64,000 nt of DNA. Source: Thalassotalea sediminis (GTDB lineage Bacteria; Pseudomonadota; Gammaproteobacteria; Enterobacterales; Alteromonadaceae). Of the stretch, positions 5,499-11,947 are shown piece by piece. The first letter of the stretch is position 1. Every line of letters starts with the position of its first letter. Position numbers and translations under genes: made by a program. The stretch is from positions 1,674,001 to 1,738,000 of the forward strand of contig NZ_AP027361.1 in NCBI RefSeq assembly GCF_030295915.1, read 5' to 3'. The notes beneath the pieces are model-generated. The model was not told the DNA's origin. It searched no databases and worked only from the letters and a program-made list of their open reading frames with translations.

Positions 5499-5568
5499 CA
5501 GCTTGCTCGGTTCCGCTACGCTTCACATTTTAGCAAGCTATTATCAGCCCCTGAATGGGGCGTTATGT
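5465..5568 (+). other. attC1 recombination site
   Basis: R'' ACATAAC at 5465, R' GTTATGT at 5562-5568. The inner 100 bp are identical to attC4. Stem arms CTGCTAACAGCTTGCT and AGCAAGCTATTATCAG are partly complementary with extrahelical bases. Confidence 0.9.
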
Positions 5569-5588
5569 GTTTTTAAGGATGATTTAGT

Positions 5589-5774
5589 ATGAGTCGAAGT
5601 ATTCACAAAACTATCAAGGGTGTTTTTGGTGGTAAATCTAAATCAACGATCAACGAAATGATTGTAGAAAATGATCCCGAAGTTGAGGCGCTAGGTAAAA
5701 AGTATTCTTATAAAAATACTGAACGTGGCAAACGAAAATTAGCAAAGCAAACTGATAGTATTGAGAAAGAGTAA
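5589..5774 (+). CDS. Cassette 2: 61-residue basic hypothetical protein
   Basis: Small, soluble and highly charged, with many Lys/Arg plus an acidic central patch; no membrane segment or known motif. An AAGGATG Shine-Dalgarno sequence sits about 8 nt upstream of the ATG. The cassette ends match (GTTATGTG at 5562 and CACATAAC at 5796). Function unknown; could be a nucleic-acid-binding or antitoxin-sized protein, but nothing in the sequence proves this. Confidence 0.7.
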   Translation: MSRSIHKTIKGVFGGKSKSTINEMIVENDPEVEALGKKYSYKNTERGKRKLAKQTDSIEKE

Positions 5775-5796
5775 CTAAACTTCAGTGTAAACAAAC

Positions 5797-5895
5797 ACAT
5801 AACAAGTCATTCCAAAGGACAAAAAACAGTTGGTTTTTGCTCCTTCGTCGCTAATTTTAACCAACTATTTTTTGCCTCTGAATGAGGCGTTAGGT
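5797..5895 (+). other. attC2 recombination site
   Basis: R'' ACATAAC, R' GTTAGGT at 5889-5895. Arms ACAGTTGGTTTTTGC and TTTTAACCAACTATTT. Shares its inner sequence type with attC12. Confidence 0.85.
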
Positions 5896-5901
5896 GAACG
5901 G

Positions 5902-6192
5902 ATGCGCAAAGCTTTAATATCATTTCCAATATTGTTTCTATGTCTCTTTTTGAGTATTTACAATTTAGAATATGGTGTTGTAATTGTCACTGAAGGTAAC
6001 GAACCTTGGTACTCTCCTTATACTTCAGCTGTATTTTTATTCTGCTCAATGTTTTTTTATCCTGTAACCTTACTTGCAAGTAAATTGGGATTAACGTTGT
6101 TTGGTGTCACTGCTATAGCGCTCTATTTTTTATACTCTATTGTAATATCAACATTTTTGTATAAGTATTGGCCTAGAAGTAAGTTCACCTAA
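5902..6192 (+). CDS. Cassette 3: three-TM membrane protein, unknown function
   Basis: 96 residues from the ATG at 5902, six bases after the R' box; the longer reading frame upstream is translated attC and is excluded. Three hydrophobic segments fill most of the protein, ending in a short basic tail. The TAA stop is part of the R'' box of the next attC. No recognised family and only a weak ribosome-binding site. Confidence 0.65.
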   Translation: MRKALISFPILFLCLFLSIYNLEYGVVIVTEGNEPWYSPYTSAVFLFCSMFFYPVTLLASKLGLTLFGVTAIALYFLYSIVISTFLYKYWPRSKFT

Positions 6193-6288
6193 CAAGGCAA
6201 TTATGTGTGGGACGTCTAAAGCTTGGCTGGCGCTCATTCTTCGCTAATTTTAGCCAAGCTTAGTACGCCCCATATTGCGGCGTTATAT
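6187..6288 (+). other. attC3 recombination site
   Basis: R'' ACCTAAC at 6187, R' GTTATAT at 6282-6288. Arms AAAGCTTGGCTGGC and TTTTAGCCAAGCTTAG. Inner sequence differs from attC11 at only about three positions. Confidence 0.9.
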
Positions 6289-6309
6289 ACCTATGTAGAA
6301 GGAAGCTAC

Positions 6310-6612
6310 TTGCATCAATTTCGAGAAAATATATTACCTGTGACTTTGTTGGTTTTAGCTGTTTTCCCAACAATAATAATTGCTCCCATTGATAGGGTGT
6401 ATTTAAAAATTACAGGTACGGAGTTTGTTGATATAACCTATGGAATGATTGCCTACTTGGTATTTATGCCAATGAGCCTATTAATAATTTCAGCTAATAT
6501 TATTTATCGTGTTTACTCTAAAAAAATCCCATTAAAAGATAGTGTTATACATTTAGCATGCTTTATACTAATGTTGTTTTTTACGATCACACGCTTTGTT
6601 GGTTACGGGTAA
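6310..6612 (+). CDS. Cassette 4: three-TM membrane protein, unknown function (TTG start)
   Basis: 100 residues if started at the TTG at 6310, which has GAAGGA seven bases upstream; the only in-frame upstream ATG lies inside attC3 and would translate the recombination site. Three hydrophobic helices are separated by short loops. Cassette ends GTTATATAC (6282) and GTATATAAC (6616-6624) are complementary. Function unknown. Confidence 0.65.
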   Translation: MHQFRENILPVTLLVLAVFPTIIIAPIDRVYLKITGTEFVDITYGMIAYLVFMPMSLLIISANIIYRVYSKKIPLKDSVIHLACFILMLFFTITRFVGYG

Positions 6613-6617
6613 TCGGT

Positions 6618-6721
6618 ATATAACAAGCCATTACAGCAACGGGACTGCTAACAGCTTGCTCGGTTCCGCTACGCTTCACATTTTAGCAAGCTATTATCAG
6701 CCCCTGAATGGGGCGTTATAA
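6618..6721 (+). other. attC4 recombination site
   Basis: R'' ATATAAC at 6618, R' GTTATAA at 6715-6721; identical to attC1 over 100 bp. Confidence 0.9.
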
Positions 6722-6739
6722 GCCAAAGGAAGTTCGGTG

Positions 6740-7087
6740 ATGAAATCGATAATTGGAAAACTGGATGTGTTAAGCGTGTTTGCAGCGTGGGCACTTTTAA
6801 TCGTTTTCTTTGTATCTTTGGCTTATGGGAAAATGTTTTCTGAACCTAGCGCAAGTGCTAGTCATTTAGTTTATTTGTTTGGGTCATTCTTTTGCGCAGT
6901 TTTAATTCATATAGTTTTGGCATTTTTCAACCGTTGCCCGCATTGCAATAAGTGTTTAACTGTTCAAGGTTTTAAAAAGCCTCATCCTGCATCAAGTGGG
7001 AGCTGGGATAAAGTTGTTTGGCGTTGGTTTTCTGGATCAATTGTTTGTATTCATTGCGGGCAAAGAGTGGCAACTAATGGCTTATAA
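6740..7087 (+). CDS. Cassette 5: two-TM protein with C-terminal zinc ribbon
   Basis: 115 residues from ATG 6740 (a GTG three bases earlier is also possible; AAAGGA lies upstream). Two membrane helices (about residues 10-30 and 42-60) are followed by a cytoplasmic four-cysteine module, CPHCNKC and CIHCG, that should bind one zinc ion. The TAA stop is within the R'' box of attC5. A membrane-anchored zinc ribbon suggests a protein- or nucleic-acid-docking role; not otherwise recognised. Confidence 0.7.
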   Translation: MKSIIGKLDVLSVFAAWALLIVFFVSLAYGKMFSEPSASASHLVYLFGSFFCAVLIHIVLAFFNRCPHCNKCLTVQGFKKPHPASSGSWDKVVWRWFSGSIVCIHCGQRVATNGL

Positions 7088-7201
7088 CAAGTTGCTCAAG
7101 CTCGTTCGTAAACTCACTGGGACAATTAACAGTTGGCTTGGCGCTTCGCGCAAGTATAGCCAACAGTCAATTGCCCCTTAGCAAAGCTACATGGACTCCC
7201 C

Positions 7202-7438
7202 TTTGTCAAGCACAAGCAGTCTATGACAACAAGAAGATCTGACAGCAGCTCTACATTCGGCGTTTATTAGCTATATACGCTATCGCCCTGATGATTTGCG
7301 CTTGCGCATGGCCTCATTCGTTAAACAGTATTTAAATACTTCCCGACTAAACAGGCTTTAATGCGCTCGGTCTGACCGTGTTATCGTCAATTGCTAATGC
7401 TACGACTCGGTGGGGTTAACCGTTTGGTTTAACCTTTT
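7202..7438 (-). ncRNA. Candidate bridge RNA region (right end of the IS1111-group element)
   Basis: About 237 nt with no ORF between the transposase stop and the right-end inverted repeat. IS110-family recombinases use a structured RNA from the non-coding end to choose target and donor; in the IS1111 group it comes from the region 3' of the transposase, as here. The region holds several self-complementary stretches (for example a 14-bp palindrome at 7327-7340 and GGTTAA/TTAACC near 7414-7434). TCATTCGTTA at 7314-7323 equals the junction sequence at 8536-8545. Exact RNA ends are unknown. Confidence 0.5.
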
Positions 7439-8464
7439 CTATTTTACATAATCAATCTGATATTCTTTTTCTGAGTGTAATAATGCCCAAATTAATCGGG
7501 CATTTTTTGCCGCTAATGCCACGGTGGCACGCTTAAACCCTCGTCGCTCGATAAGGTCTTTTATCCATAAACTGGTTCTGTCAGTTTTGTGCCTGCAGTT
7601 AGCAATCACGGCTCGCGCGCCATGAATGAGTGAGGTGCGAATATGTTTTTCGCCACGTTTGGATATTCTTCCTAACTTTACCTGTCCACCTGTAGTGTAT
7701 TGCTTTGGTACTAAACCAATCCATGCACTAAAGGCACGAGAGGTGTCGAAGTCTTTGGCATCACAGACAGTAGCAACTACCGCGGTTGCGGTCACTTCGC
7801 CGACACCAGGAATACTCATTAAGCGTTTAGCGGCATGCATTTGATGGGCTAATTGATACAGTTTTCTGTCATGTTTAAGGATTTGTTCGTTTAACCCTTT
7901 TATCTCTTGCCATAAATCATGCAATAGCTCTCTGGCGAGCATAGGTAAGCCGTTCTCTGCATCTTCTAAAATACTGGTGATAGCATGTTGTGCTGGGTAT
8001 CTACCTTTAGGCATAACAATACCGAACTCAGCGAGTAAGCCTCTAAGGCGATTAATCAGTGCTGTTCTGTCTTTGATAGCCCCTTGGCGAATACGATGTA
8101 AACACAATACGGCTTGTTGCTCTTCACTTTTAATACTCACAAACCGTGTTTTAGGACGTGTTACCGCTTCGCATATGGCTTCGGCGTCATTGGCATCATT
8201 TTTCTCATTTTGGCGATATGGGATAACAAACTTAGAGGCCATGATACGCACGTCATGACCAAGCTTAGTAAATTCTCTTGCCCAGTAATGAGCGCCAGAG
8301 CAAGCTTCCATGCCGATAATACATGGTGGCAATTTAGCAATTTCAGGTAACAGTTTGTTTCGCTTAACAGTTTTACGTAATTTACACTTGTCATGAGCAT
8401 CCACACCGTGGATACTAAACACAGATTTGGCTAAATCAACGCCAATTGCTTTAATTAGTGACAT
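7439..8464 (-). CDS. IS110-family transposase (DEDD recombinase), IS1111 group
   Basis: 341 residues from MSLIKAIGVD; the upstream in-frame extension is translated inverted repeat and is excluded, and GAGGAG lies about 9 nt before this ATG. The RuvC-like DEDD domain shows GVDLAKSVF (Asp10), GMEACSGAHYWA (Glu53) and NDANDAEA (Asp90, Asp93). The C-terminal transposase_20 domain shows SIPGVGEVTATAV and GRISKRGEKHIR, which carries the conserved serine. Intact, so the element could still be active. Confidence 0.95.
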   Translation of the reverse strand: MSLIKAIGVDLAKSVFSIHGVDAHDKCKLRKTVKRNKLLPEIAKLPPCIIGMEACSGAHYWAREFTKLGHDVRIMASKFVIPYRQNEKNDANDAEAICEAVTRPKTRFVSIKSEEQQAVLCLHRIRQGAIKDRTALINRLRGLLAEFGIVMPKGRYPAQHAITSILEDAENGLPMLARELLHDLWQEIKGLNEQILKHDRKLYQLAHQMHAAKRLMSIPGVGEVTATAVVATVCDAKDFDTSRAFSAWIGLVPKQYTTGGQVKLGRISKRGEKHIRTSLIHGARAVIANCRHKTDRTSLWIKDLIERRGFKRATVALAAKNARLIWALLHSEKEYQIDYVK

Positions 8465-8583
8465 ATGGACTCTCCTCAATTGAAGCTCTTTATCAACTTC
8501 ACTATGGCACATTGATGCTGAGTGGGGAGTCCATATCATTCGTTATGCAGCTATGAGCAGCCTACAAATTTTGGAATATAAAA

Positions 8584-9135
8584 ATGATAAAGTTAATTGG
8601 AGTAGCGCTGCAAGCTTTTGGGATGCGAAGTGCTAAACAAAAAGAAAAAACTCAAAGGGTAATTGATTATATTGATACTTGTCTTGAGCACATGGAAAAC
8701 ATCATGGGCTATAAAAAGGACGTAAATGAGGCAAGTGTAGAGCAGTCAAGAAAGTTTCTTCAGAGCGCATATCATGAAATGGCTTTTCAGTTAAACGGTG
8801 TCGCTACTCCTGTTGAATGCGACATAATTAAAAATTCGATTGCAAGTGCTCGAATTTACTTTCATGCAGTTAAAGAAGGTAAAGTGGTCAATGAAGATCT
8901 TACAATAGATTATGAATCACGCTATCAACTGTATATTAATCATATTTATGATCAAAAAGAATTCCGACAAAACTCATATGAAACGTTCCTTAGACAGCTT
9001 GTCAAAGACAAACGTGAAATTGATAAAAATTATGTCGAAATGGAGTTACAAAAAATAAAGGAAGTCTGCCAAGAAGATGTAGCAAGAATAATGTCATTAC
9101 GAGAAACACTTAAAACTCGAAAAGCAGCGGCATAA
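8584..9135 (+). CDS. Cassette 6: 183-residue soluble hypothetical protein
   Basis: Mainly alpha-helical and charged, with no membrane segment apart from a mildly hydrophobic N-terminus (MIKLIGVALQAFGM); the C-terminal third looks coiled-coil-prone. The ATG lies 36 nt after the R' box without an obvious Shine-Dalgarno sequence. The TAA stop is in the R'' box of attC6. No family recognised. The gene now lies 47 nt downstream of the IS, which has probably cut it off from array read-through transcription. Confidence 0.7.
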   Translation: MIKLIGVALQAFGMRSAKQKEKTQRVIDYIDTCLEHMENIMGYKKDVNEASVEQSRKFLQSAYHEMAFQLNGVATPVECDIIKNSIASARIYFHAVKEGKVVNEDLTIDYESRYQLYINHIYDQKEFRQNSYETFLRQLVKDKREIDKNYVEMELQKIKEVCQEDVARIMSLRETLKTRKAAA

Positions 9136-9230
9136 CAAGGCCTTAAAGTCGGATTCGTAACAGTTTGCTCGGTTCCACTTCGTCTCACATTTTAGCAAAC
9201 TGTTATTCACCGCTTAAGGCGGCGTTAGGT
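9130..9230 (+). other. attC6 recombination site
   Basis: R'' GCATAAC at 9130, R' GTTAGGT at 9224-9230; arms AACAGTTTGCT and AGCAAACTGTT. Confidence 0.9.
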
Positions 9231-9242
9231 GTACTAAAGAAT

Positions 9243-9527
9243 ATGCGAACAAAGGATAGTTCAGATAACCAATTTGGTTTTATTATTTGCTTAGTTTCCT
9301 TATTGGCTGTGTTGTCAGTTGTATTGTCAGGAAAGGAGCAATGGCTTAAGTATATAGCTCCAATCTTTCTGCTTTGGGGTTTAAATTGTATTTGGGCATA
9401 CTTCAAAAAGAAAATAATTTATAGTTTGTACTTTCCAATACCTAATGACGCACAAATTGTTTTACGCATTCTAGGTTTAGCTATTGGTATTTTATTTATT
9501 ATTGTCAGTATTGGTATGTACACCTAA
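9243..9527 (+). CDS. Cassette 7: three-TM small membrane protein
   Basis: 94 residues from ATG 9243 (the longer frame upstream is translated attC6). A short charged N-terminus is followed by hydrophobic segments around residues 11-28, 35-50 and 72-92. The cassette ends are complementary over 11 bp (GTTAGGTGTAC and GTACACCTAAC), and the TAA stop is part of R''. Function unknown. Confidence 0.65.
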   Translation: MRTKDSSDNQFGFIICLVSLLAVLSVVLSGKEQWLKYIAPIFLLWGLNCIWAYFKKKIIYSLYFPIPNDAQIVLRILGLAIGILFIIVSIGMYT

Positions 9528-9625
9528 CAAGCGCATTAAGTGACGGGACTGCTAACGCTTGGCTCGGTTCCGCTTCGCTTCACAGTTTAGCCAAGCATTA
9601 TCAGCCCCTTATGCGGGCGTTATAT
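9522..9625 (+). other. attC7 recombination site
   Basis: R'' ACCTAAC at 9522, R' GTTATAT at 9619-9625; arms CTAACGCTTGGCT and AGCCAAGCATTA. Confidence 0.9.
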
Positions 9626-9640
9626 GCCACAAGGAAAAGT

Positions 9641-10267
9641 ATGAAGTCGATTTTCAAAATCATCGGGAATTTATGGGCGTTAGCTTTTATCTCGTTTGTT
9701 GCTATTAAATTTTATGATAGTTCTGGAAATGAATTACCTGAATTAGCTATTTTGTATGCTTCAAAATTTGAAGGATTTCTTAGTGCATTTTTAACTTCTT
9801 CATGGTTCTTTGTCGTTTTTATTGCAATGTGGTTAGCAATAAGTTTTCATATCTCTAAATCCAGTGGTTGGGCTAAATTAGCAGAAAGATACAGCGCGAA
9901 TTATCCTCATGAAGACCAGCTAAATTTTAAAACAATAACTGCGGTATTTGATGAACAGGCATTTAGAAATGTTCTAAAGTGTGCAGTAAATAGTAATGGT
10001 GTTTATCTTAAAATCACATTTCCTTTTAACTTTGGTTTCAAAAAGTTGTTCATTCCATGGCACGCAATAAGTACCGTAGAACGAGAACAGGATAAACGTA
10101 CCGAGTCATCTTTAAGTTTGGTCAATAAATTCTTAGATACAATCCCTATAGAAAATCGTTATTTTATTAGGCTAAATATGTATCCAGAGCAAATTATAAA
10201 ATTAGAAGAAAAAGAATTTAATCTTATAAAAAATGAATTTCCTGCCCATATACTAGGTGGCATATAA
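9641..10267 (+). CDS. Cassette 8: two-TM protein with C-terminal soluble domain
   Basis: 208 residues from ATG 9641 with AAGGA five bases upstream. Two membrane helices (about 8-24 and 50-70) are followed by a cytoplasmic domain starting SGWAKLAERYS and continuing with beta-rich sequence (VYLKITFPFNFGFKKLFIPWHAI) that resembles PH-like modules seen behind paired helices in bacterial membrane proteins; this resemblance is by eye. The stop is in the R'' box. Function unknown. Confidence 0.65.
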   Translation: MKSIFKIIGNLWALAFISFVAIKFYDSSGNELPELAILYASKFEGFLSAFLTSSWFFVVFIAMWLAISFHISKSSGWAKLAERYSANYPHEDQLNFKTITAVFDEQAFRNVLKCAVNSNGVYLKITFPFNFGFKKLFIPWHAISTVEREQDKRTESSLSLVNKFLDTIPIENRYFIRLNMYPEQIIKLEEKEFNLIKNEFPAHILGGI

Positions 10268-10365
10268 CAAGCTGTTTAAGTGCGGGACTGCTAACGTTTG
10301 GCTCGGTTTCGCTACGCTACACAAGTTTAGCCAAACATTATCAGCCCCTTAACAGGGCGTTATGT
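10262..10365 (+). other. attC8 recombination site
   Basis: R'' ATATAAC at 10262, R' GTTATGT at 10359-10365; arms CTAACGTTTGGCT and AGCCAAACATTA. Confidence 0.9.
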
Positions 10366-10379
10366 TGCAAGGAGGCCGT

Positions 10380-10709
10380 TTGAAACTAATTTTAGCTATA
10401 TCATTTCCATTGTTACTTACGTCTACACTTTATTGGTTCTATTTATGTTCAAAGCTATTTGAACACTTAAAGATAAACCATCCTCAAATATATTCTGAAA
10501 TTGGAGAGCCTTCATTATTCTGGAATAGTACGCCATCAAATAATAATGCATTACTTAAATTTCTATTAAAAAAGGAGTGGCTGAAAGTAGATGATACTTA
10601 TTTAAATAAAACTTGTTCTATTATGAGGCTATTTTTTATAATCTATTCAATTGTTTTATTTATTGTTTTATTTATTGTTTTTGCGGCATTCTTTGTTGAA
10701 GCAACATAA
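10380..10709 (+). CDS. Cassette 9: UspB-like small membrane protein (TTG start)
   Basis: 109 residues from the TTG at 10380, which has a perfect AAGGAGG four bases upstream; the ATG at 10362 overlaps the R' box. An N-terminal membrane helix, a central segment with NHPQIYSEIGEPSLFWNS, then a C-terminal helix (IIYSIVLFIVLFIVFAAFFV). Size and layout resemble UspB-type proteins, and the same HP-G-PS-WN motif occurs in the next cassette. The stop lies in R''. Function unknown. Confidence 0.65.
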   Translation: MKLILAISFPLLLTSTLYWFYLCSKLFEHLKINHPQIYSEIGEPSLFWNSTPSNNNALLKFLLKKEWLKVDDTYLNKTCSIMRLFFIIYSIVLFIVLFIVFAAFFVEAT

Positions 10710-10808
10710 CAAGCCATTACAGTAACGGGACTGCTAACAGTTTGCTCGGTTTCGCTTCGCTACATATTTTAGCCAACTATTACTTAGCCGTTTAACGCGG
10801 CGTTATAT
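10704..10808 (+). other. attC9 recombination site
   Basis: R'' ACATAAC at 10704, R' GTTATAT at 10802-10808; arms CTAACAGTTTGCT and AGCCAACTATTA. Confidence 0.9.
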
Positions 10809-10825
10809 GCACAAGGAGGCATGCA

Positions 10826-11122
10826 ATCATCACCTTATTTTATGTCAGCCTTTTTGTTTCAATAAGTATCGTAAATTTTATCGTTATTCGTAAATTAAAG
10901 AAGAATCATCCCAAAGCCCTAGATAAAGGTGGTAATCCATCAGGGTTATGGAATAACGCTACTAATGCATCTTTTACATTTGGTTATATTGGGCTTAGGT
11001 TGTATCGTCACGATAAACTAGATAAAAATACGTTACGTTGGTGTAATGGATTAAGCGTTTTGGTTTGGTTTTTATTTGTCATCATAATCAATGAGTTGTA
11101 CAACGTTATTTATGTGTATTAA
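10826..11122 (+). CDS. Cassette 10: UspB-like small membrane protein with no canonical start codon
   Basis: An open frame of about 98 codons ends at TAA 11120-11122. It encodes an N-terminal helix (IITLFYVSLFVSISIVNFIV), then LKKNHPKALDKGGNPSGLWNNA, which parallels cassette 9, and a C-terminal helix. There is no ATG, GTG or TTG at its 5' end. A perfect AAGGAGG (10813-10819) is followed at 1 nt by an ATG in another frame that stops after 14 codons, and at 6 nt by an in-frame ATC. Either an AUC start or a one-base deletion just after the ATG explains it; the latter would make this a pseudogene. Confidence 0.5.
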   Translation: MITLFYVSLFVSISIVNFIVIRKLKKNHPKALDKGGNPSGLWNNATNASFTFGYIGLRLYRHDKLDKNTLRWCNGLSVLVWFLFVIIINELYNVIYVY

Positions 11123-11127
11123 AGTGC

Positions 11128-11230
11128 ATATAACAAGCGCATTAAGCATGGGACTGCTAACAGTTTGCTCGGTTCCGCTTCGCTTCACATTTTAGCAAAC
11201 TATTATCAGCTCCTTATGCGGGCGTTATAA
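11128..11230 (+). other. attC10 recombination site
   Basis: R'' ATATAAC at 11128, R' GTTATAA at 11224-11230; cassette 10 termini match over 11 bp (GTTATATGCAC and GTGCATATAAC). Confidence 0.9.
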
Positions 11231-11244
11231 ATTTAGGGGACGCG

Positions 11245-11532
11245 GTGAATAATCCTACACCTTTTGAAATCAGGAAGTTACTAGATGACTGTGGTCGCGC
11301 AGGACTTCTGGTGCAGATTCCTAGCTTTCCACCTGAAACTCAAGAACTATGCTTTCAAATTATCGAGCAAGTAGAAAATGATAAATTGGAAGAATTAAAA
11401 ATCGCATTGCAAAAAGATGCGAATCAAATAGCGTCATCCGCTAATAAAAAGTCAGGTATTTCACTTTGGGTAAGTTCGATTGCTTGTATAGTTAGTGTTT
11501 TTTCATTTATCGTAATGTATTGTCGTGGTTAA
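11245..11532 (+). CDS. Cassette 11: C-terminally anchored small protein (GTG start)
   Basis: 95 residues from a GTG preceded by AGGGGA. The first ~70 residues are soluble and helical; a single hydrophobic helix (WVSSIACIVSVFSFIVMY) near the C-terminus makes it a tail-anchored protein. The cassette termini match over 11 bp. No family recognised. Confidence 0.65.
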   Translation: MNNPTPFEIRKLLDDCGRAGLLVQIPSFPPETQELCFQIIEQVENDKLEELKIALQKDANQIASSANKKSGISLWVSSIACIVSVFSFIVMYCRG

Positions 11533-11535
11533 AAT

Positions 11536-11637
11536 TTATAACAAGGCAATTATGGATGGGACGTCTAAAGCTTGGCTGGCGCTCATTCTTCGCTAATTTT
11601 AGCCAAGCTTAATACGCCCCATATTGCGGCGTTAGCT
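11536..11637 (+). other. attC11 recombination site
   Basis: R'' TTATAAC at 11536, R' GTTAGCT at 11631-11637; near-identical inner sequence to attC3. Confidence 0.9.
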
Positions 11638-11659
11638 GTATAAGCATGTGAGGTATACC

Positions 11660-11947
11660 ATGGAAGGAATATTAAATGTTTTATTACCATCAATTTTAAT
11701 AGTTTTAATTATACATTTACTAAAACTGGTGTCGTTATTTCGATTTGTACTATTAATTTTTTTAGCTATATCATCTACATTCTTTGTCGATTTCTTGTAT
11801 TGTGAAATCCTTAAGTCAAGTTGTTCATCTGATCCATTGGTCGGGTTAGGTTATATAATTCATTCAATTTTAGTGGTGGTTGTTTCATTTGTTCTTGAAA
11901 TAGCTCGGGCAAATTTGTTAATCCATCTAAAAAGAAAATACAGCTAA
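11660..11947 (+). CDS. Cassette 12: three-TM small membrane protein
   Basis: 95 residues from ATG 11660 (GAGGT six bases upstream; an in-frame GTG four codons earlier is the alternative). Hydrophobic segments around residues 5-25, 28-46 and 64-84, then a basic tail. The stop codon is in the R'' box. Function unknown. Confidence 0.65.
   Translation: MEGILNVLLPSILIVLIIHLLKLVSLFRFVLLIFLAISSTFFVDFLYCEILKSSCSSDPLVGLGYIIHSILVVVVSFVLEIARANLLIHLKRKYS

What the first reader, a model, noticed from the sequence alone, without database searches (positions are those of the whole stretch)
7202..7438. Candidate bridge RNA with a 10-nt match to the attC/element junction
The non-coding right end contains TCATTCGTTA (7314-7323), identical to the element/R' junction at 8536-8545; the following bases make GTTAAAC, a perfect GTTRRRY core. 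A shorter GCTAC occurs both near 7400 and directly before the left repeat (7186-7190). A simple 4^-10 estimate makes the 10-nt match uncommon by chance (below about 1 in 100). It could be a guide loop that pairs with attC cores, explaining the site choice.
Basis: partly seen in the sequence, partly recalled or inferred. Interest (0 to 1): 0.75.

Follow-up and report, generated by a model that had tools for sequence, protein, structure and literature searches.

The report
Two-loop guide RNA of attC-targeting IS

Summary
The match is real: TCATTCGTTA occurs at 7314-7323 and 8536-8545 and nowhere else in the window. It lies in the downstream non-coding region of a 1354-bp IS1111-attC element (7188-8541, transposase on the minus strand). 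I compared 99 related elements. The region encodes an IS1111 seekRNA/bridge RNA (covariance model hit 7400-7239, minus). The matched bases lie in the internal loop, not in a stem, except 7314. Reading the RNA strand, 7325-7319 (TTTAACG) is the left target guide and pairs with the attC R' core. Its partner, the right target guide (TTTAGTCGGG, 7351-7342), faces it and reads the attC L' side. Guides change with target across the family. The rest of the match (AATGA) is loop scaffold that happens to equal the element's left tip; it does not co-change with that tip. The true donor guides are elsewhere: ATCAT (7295-7291), complementary to the left tip, and AATGTAG (7257-7251), matching right tip plus core. 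These co-change with the element ends on a transposase tree. The GCTAC match near 7400 is not conserved. The mechanism was already shown for ISKpn4 and ISPst6 (PMC11187229). Verdict: new member of a known kind, with covariation evidence for donor guides in IS1111.

The parts
7188..8541 (-). IS1111-attC insertion sequence, 1354 bp, inserted between C and GTTATGC at the end of an attC site
   Evidence: Ends from the inverted repeats plus the 7-nt and 3-nt extensions; the same ends occur in copies at other attC sites
7439..8461 (-). DEDD transposase, 340 aa
   Evidence: PF01548 and PF02371 hits; full-length relatives
8524..8534 (-). left subterminal inverted repeat ATGGACTCCCC
7191..7201 (-). right subterminal inverted repeat GGGGAGTCCAT
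8535..8541 (-). 7-nt left extension GAATGAT (right half of the donor; first base G is the core)
7188..7190 (-). 3-nt right extension GTA (left half of the donor)
7239..7400 (-). guide RNA (seekRNA/bridge RNA), model-supported extent; true 5' and 3' ends unknown
   Evidence: Covariance model R1, 174.9 bits, positions 1-164 of 164
7342..7351 (-). right target guide TTTAGTCGGG, 5' strand of the target loop; pairs with the target strand next to the L' box
   Evidence: In Vibrio copies this strand is an exact 9-nt complement of the right flank (TTAATTGGG); in L018 it has changed together with its own flank
7319..7325 (-). left target guide TTTAACG (core G at 7319), 3' strand of the target loop; pairs with the attC R' core
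   Evidence: TAACG in all 29 attC elements; changes with the target elsewhere; unpaired in the consensus fold
7314..7318 (-).
   Evidence: No supported co-change with the left extension; AATAA or AGTGA in six attC elements
7327..7340 (-). apical hairpin AGTATTTAAATACT of the target loop
   Evidence: All 4 counted pairs show changes on both sides
7291..7295 (-). right donor guide ATCAT, complementary to bases 3-7 of the left extension
   Evidence: Covaries with the left extension across 53 non-redundant elements; co-change on the tree
7251..7257 (-). left donor guide AATGTAG, of which ATGTAG is the last bases of the inverted repeat (AT), the right extension GTA and core G
   Evidence: 42 of 46 elements carry their own right extension plus core base after a conserved scaffold motif; co-change on the tree
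7083..7187 (+). interrupted attC site, left part; the R' remnant GTTATGC is at 8542-8548
   Evidence: R'', L'' and L' boxes read from the sequence

Best explanation
The non-coding region behind the transposase gene encodes a seekRNA/bridge RNA with two loops. In the target loop, the 5' strand (TTTAGTCGGG) pairs with the strand next to the attC L' box and the 3' strand (TTTAACG) pairs with the opposite strand over the attC R' core; the two meet at the core G where the element inserts. In the donor loop, ATCAT pairs with the left tip of the element and AATGTAG with the right tip plus the same core base. The DEDD transposase would use the RNA to hold the abutted element ends and the attC site together and recombine them. 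Shown here: the sequences, the consensus fold and the co-change of guides with their DNA partners. Inferred: expression, binding to the transposase, and catalysis.
For: Element anatomy as in the IS1111 family. Three near-identical copies in the same genome, all in attC sites with different flanks. RNAalifold on 24 attC-type RNAs puts the matched bases in an internal loop, with 8 pairs showing changes on both sides; in the named 14-pair structure 98.2% of cells pair against 84% in shuffles, covariation score 0.434 against 0.154. In elements with other targets the same loop carries other sequences that match their own flanks. Left guide to left flank co-change on the transposase tree at positions -1 to -4: 19, 16, 17 and 13 shared branches. 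Donor guides: left extension base 6 with RNA, 8 shared branches of 9 DNA and 11 RNA changes, p=1e-8; right extension base 1, 4 of 4, p=1e-5; core with left donor guide, 6 of 10, p=5e-5; controls p>0.5. The model finds exactly five RNAs in the genome, each beside one of the five complete copies. The order, top-strand guide 5' of bottom-strand guide, is that reported for IS1111 seekRNAs (PMC11187229).
Against: No transcript or binding data for this element. The single-sequence fold is no more stable than shuffles (z -0.35). The right target guide matches the window's own site at only 5 of 10 bases (9 with wobble) and does not single out occupied from unoccupied attC sites. Left-guide positions were located by their match to the flank, so that test is partly circular; the donor-guide tests were anchored without the element ends. 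Left extension base 7 co-changes only weakly (p=0.075). PMC11187229 found that an 82-nt seekRNA of ISEc11 suffices, which may leave the donor loop dispensable.
Confidence: 0.92

Rival explanations
1. The whole 10-nt stretch is a junction guide: it pairs across the integrated left junction (target R' plus left tip) and serves excision of the resident copy.
For: Exact 10-nt identity in the window and in 23 of 29 attC elements. Movement of ISEc11 requires the correct target sequence around the donor (PMC11187229). In a first permutation test the extension matched its own left extension slightly more than others'.
Against: On the tree the extension positions do not co-change with the left extension (0-2 shared branches, p 0.07-1); the permutation signal weakens after removing elements with a 6-nt left extension or uncertain loops (71 of 5000); six attC elements break the match while keeping the insertion site. 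Separate guides for the left tip exist.
Confidence: 0.07
2. The match is a coincidence: a stretch of RNA scaffold that happens to resemble the junction.
For: The AATGA half appears to be exactly this.
Against: The TAACG half is invariant in 29 attC elements and is replaced by each element's own target sequence in others.
Confidence: 0.02
3. The match is a relic: a fragment of attC or of an element end captured in the non-coding region by past recombination, with no guide role.
For: One hybrid element exists in the genome, so recombination between copies does occur.
Against: The position is fixed within a conserved fold and present in elements as far apart as 53% transposase identity.
Confidence: 0.01

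Closest known systems
IS1111-attC elements ISKpn4, ISPst6 and ISPa25 with their seekRNAs (Siddiquee et al. 2024, PMC11187229)
   Same: Target at one end of attC; downstream non-coding region; guides in the same order; both strands of the target read
   Different: Found in marine Gammaproteobacteria; here donor guides are also identified, which I did not find described in that paper's main text. Sequences of those three elements were not in reach for a direct alignment
IS110-family bridge RNA of IS621 (Durrant et al. 2024, PMC11208160)
   Same: Target loop and donor loop, each with two guides that overlap at a core
   Different: RNA in the other (3') end; guide order reversed; a single conserved core base appears rather than a CT dinucleotide; long subterminal repeats
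Predicted IS1111 bridge RNAs (ISPa11, ISAzs32 and others in PMC11208160)
   Same: RNA in the right end; donor-binding nucleotides predicted
   Different: There inspected by hand for a few elements; here supported by co-change over about 50 non-redundant elements

Membership tests
IS1111 group of the IS110 family | DEDD transposase with C-terminal Transposase_20 domain | tested here: met
   PF01548 4.6e-14, PF02371 1.1e-24
IS1111 group of the IS110 family | 11-13 bp subterminal inverted repeats with 7-bp left and 3-bp right extensions | tested here: met
   ATGGACTCCCC pair, GAATGAT and GTA
IS1111 group of the IS110 family | Long non-coding region downstream of the transposase gene | tested here: met
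   About 240 nt from the stop codon to the right repeat
IS1111 group of the IS110 family | Circular intermediate with abutted ends | not testable with these tools
   Needs experiment
IS1111-attC group | Insertion at one fixed position and orientation in attC | tested here: met
   Copies L001-L003 and 26 relatives all read YAAC, element, then mostly GCC in the element's orientation
seekRNA / bridge RNA | Two guides facing each other in an internal loop, matching opposite strands of the target | tested here: met
seekRNA / bridge RNA | Second loop with guides for the element ends (bridge RNA proper) | tested here: met
[quoted passage not shown]
   Needs small-RNA sequencing of purified complex
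Rfam families | Match to a curated RNA family | tested here: not met
   No hit up to E=1 in 6000-10000

The most novel reading that the evidence does not exclude
IS1111 RNAs in general are full four-guide bridge RNAs whose donor loop reads five bases of the left tip and the right tip plus core, and in the attC group the left target guide additionally reads through into the left tip, giving a single 10-nt guide for the resident junction that couples excision to the presence of the right target around the element.
Probability: 0.1. Interest if true: 0.6.

Novelty: new member of a known kind. Interest (0 to 1): 0.4.

Why it matters
It gives a complete, testable guide map for an attC-specific element outside the elements studied so far. 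It also adds comparative evidence that IS1111 RNAs carry donor guides, a point on which the two founding papers differ: one describes target matches only and finds a short target-loop RNA sufficient, the other predicts donor binding. The guides read attC as linear double-stranded sequence across the L' and R' boxes, which accounts for the choice of attC as a class but not for which attC is hit.

Tried and rejected
Second match GCTAC/GTAGC at 7399-7403: lost in close relatives with the same ends. Extension of the left target guide as a donor guide: no co-change. Prediction of occupied versus unoccupied attC sites from guide complementarity: only about nine clear sites in the window, no separation. 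Viral contigs: no relatives. Rfam: no family. Search for ISKpn4/ISPst6/ISPa25 sequences in the plasmid set through related transposases and one related RNA: none recognised. Single-sequence folding energy: uninformative.

Full report
Observation. TCATTCGTTA is present at 7314-7323 and 8536-8545 and nowhere else in the window (expected 0.17). At 8536-8545 it is made of six bases of the element and four of the attC R' box. The element is read on the minus strand. Its transposase runs 8461 to 7439 and carries PF01548 and PF02371. The subterminal repeats ATGGACTCCCC are at 8534-8524 and 7201-7191, with a 7-nt left extension GAATGAT and a 3-nt right extension GTA. The attC site reads GCAAAGC then GTTATGC once the element is set aside, so the insertion point is between L' and R' at C^GTT.

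Related elements. The same genome holds three near-identical copies, all in attC sites with different flanks, a hybrid copy, a copy at 59% transposase identity and a fragment. With genome collections and plasmids I extracted 99 elements with both ends: 29 attC elements (from 100% down to 53% transposase identity), the hybrid, and 69 elements with other targets.

Target loop. On the RNA strand the attC elements have, in order, a closing stem (GCCTG in most), a 10-nt strand, a short hairpin, a strand ending TAACGAATGA or a near variant, then the other side of the stem (GGC in most). RNAalifold on 24 of them, without guidance, leaves the TAACGAATG strand unpaired between a CCT/AGG stem and the apical hairpin; the fold is supported by changes on both sides of 8 pairs and by controls. 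The 5' strand is the complement of the right flank: Vibrio copies have TTAATTGGG, exactly complementary to CCCAATTAA beside them, and L018, whose flank is GCTTTATAG, has CTATAAAGC. In elements with other targets the same two strands match their own left and right flanks. On a transposase tree, changes at the last four left-flank positions fall on the same branches as changes in the guide: 19 of 21, 16 of 20, 17 of 17 and 13 of 19. That guide was located through its match, so the test is partly circular, but the size of the effect and the decay at positions -5 and -6 argue for a guide of 4-5 bases plus core.

The rest of the match. The five bases AATGA after the core equal the left tip of the element. 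In elements with other targets this place often reads GATNAGG or similar. It is AATAA in five and AGTGA in one of the attC elements. A first permutation test gave a weak signal that shrank after removal of elements with a 6-nt left extension or uncertain loops and is absent on the tree (0-2 shared branches). I read it as scaffold.

Donor loop. About 28 nt after the left target guide the RNA carries the complement of the last five bases of the left extension: ATCAT for GAATGAT, CTCAT for GAATGAG, GTCAT for GAATGAC, and corresponding words for TAATGGA, TGATGTG and others. The mean own match is 4.5 of 5 against 3.8 under permutation, 0 of 5000 reaching it, with flat controls. Further on, after a conserved CCGAAT or CCGGAT motif, the RNA repeats the element's own right extension and core base in 42 of 46 elements: GTAG, ATAT, ATAC, AGAT, ACAT, CTAT. 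These two stretches face each other between an AGC/GCT stem and a GGCG/CGCC stem, the same arrangement as the target loop. Co-change on the tree, anchored without reference to the element ends, gives p=1e-8 for left-extension base 6, 1e-5 and 2e-5 for right-extension bases 1 and 2 and 5e-5 for the core, while swapped controls give p>0.5. The p-values assume changes fall at random on branches and are approximate.

Spread. A covariance model of the attC-type RNA finds exactly five hits in the genome, each beside one of the five complete copies. It also finds full-length hits in the non-coding regions of many IS1111 elements with other targets and in 22 other genomes of a class-wide sample of 369.

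Comparison with what is known. Siddiquee et al. (PMC11187229) showed for ISKpn4 and ISPst6, which target one end of attC sites, that the downstream region makes a seekRNA that co-purifies with the transposase, with the top-strand guide 5' of the bottom-strand guide; this element fits in every feature I could test. Durrant et al. (PMC11208160) predicted bridge RNAs in 93% of IS1111 elements and noted possible donor-binding nucleotides. The donor-guide evidence here is consistent with that prediction and extends it by comparative data. It sits uneasily with the sufficiency of an 82-nt RNA for ISEc11, which remains to be resolved by experiment.

Limits. No expression or binding data. The right target guide pairs imperfectly with the window's own site (5 Watson-Crick plus 4 wobble of 10) and does not distinguish occupied from free attC sites. 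The sequences of ISKpn4, ISPst6 and ISPa25 were not found in the collections, so kinship with them rests on anatomy and mechanism.

Noticed in passing
L004 (G000:C1:2556414-2557427 and ends): Hybrid element: the first about 490 nt match the L005-type copy (95-100% in most blocks) and the transposase gene from there on is identical to the window copy (non-coding region 95-97% over most of its length in a three-way alignment). Its left extension AATTGAG no longer fits its right donor guide ATCAT, so it may be stranded.
   Followed up: partly
L006 (G000:C1:2201447-2201914): Left-end fragment of an L005-type element with a stop codon, for which no right end was found.
   Followed up: no
L154 (G425:C31:3239-3406): Guide RNA (113 bits) and right end without a recognisable transposase gene; probably a remnant.
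   Followed up: partly
All 99 elements, first base of the left extension and of the right flank: These two bases are the same in most elements (G in the attC group, T or C elsewhere; 26 of 30 in the curated non-attC set), which suggests a one-base core for IS1111 rather than a dinucleotide.
   Followed up: partly
L020: An attC element with right extension ATA instead of GTA and loop TAACGAGTGA, while its left donor guide still reads GTAG: a possible recent mismatch.
   Followed up: no
window 5500-11700: Short integron cassette array with about nine clear attC sites carrying mostly small unknown proteins.
   Followed up: no
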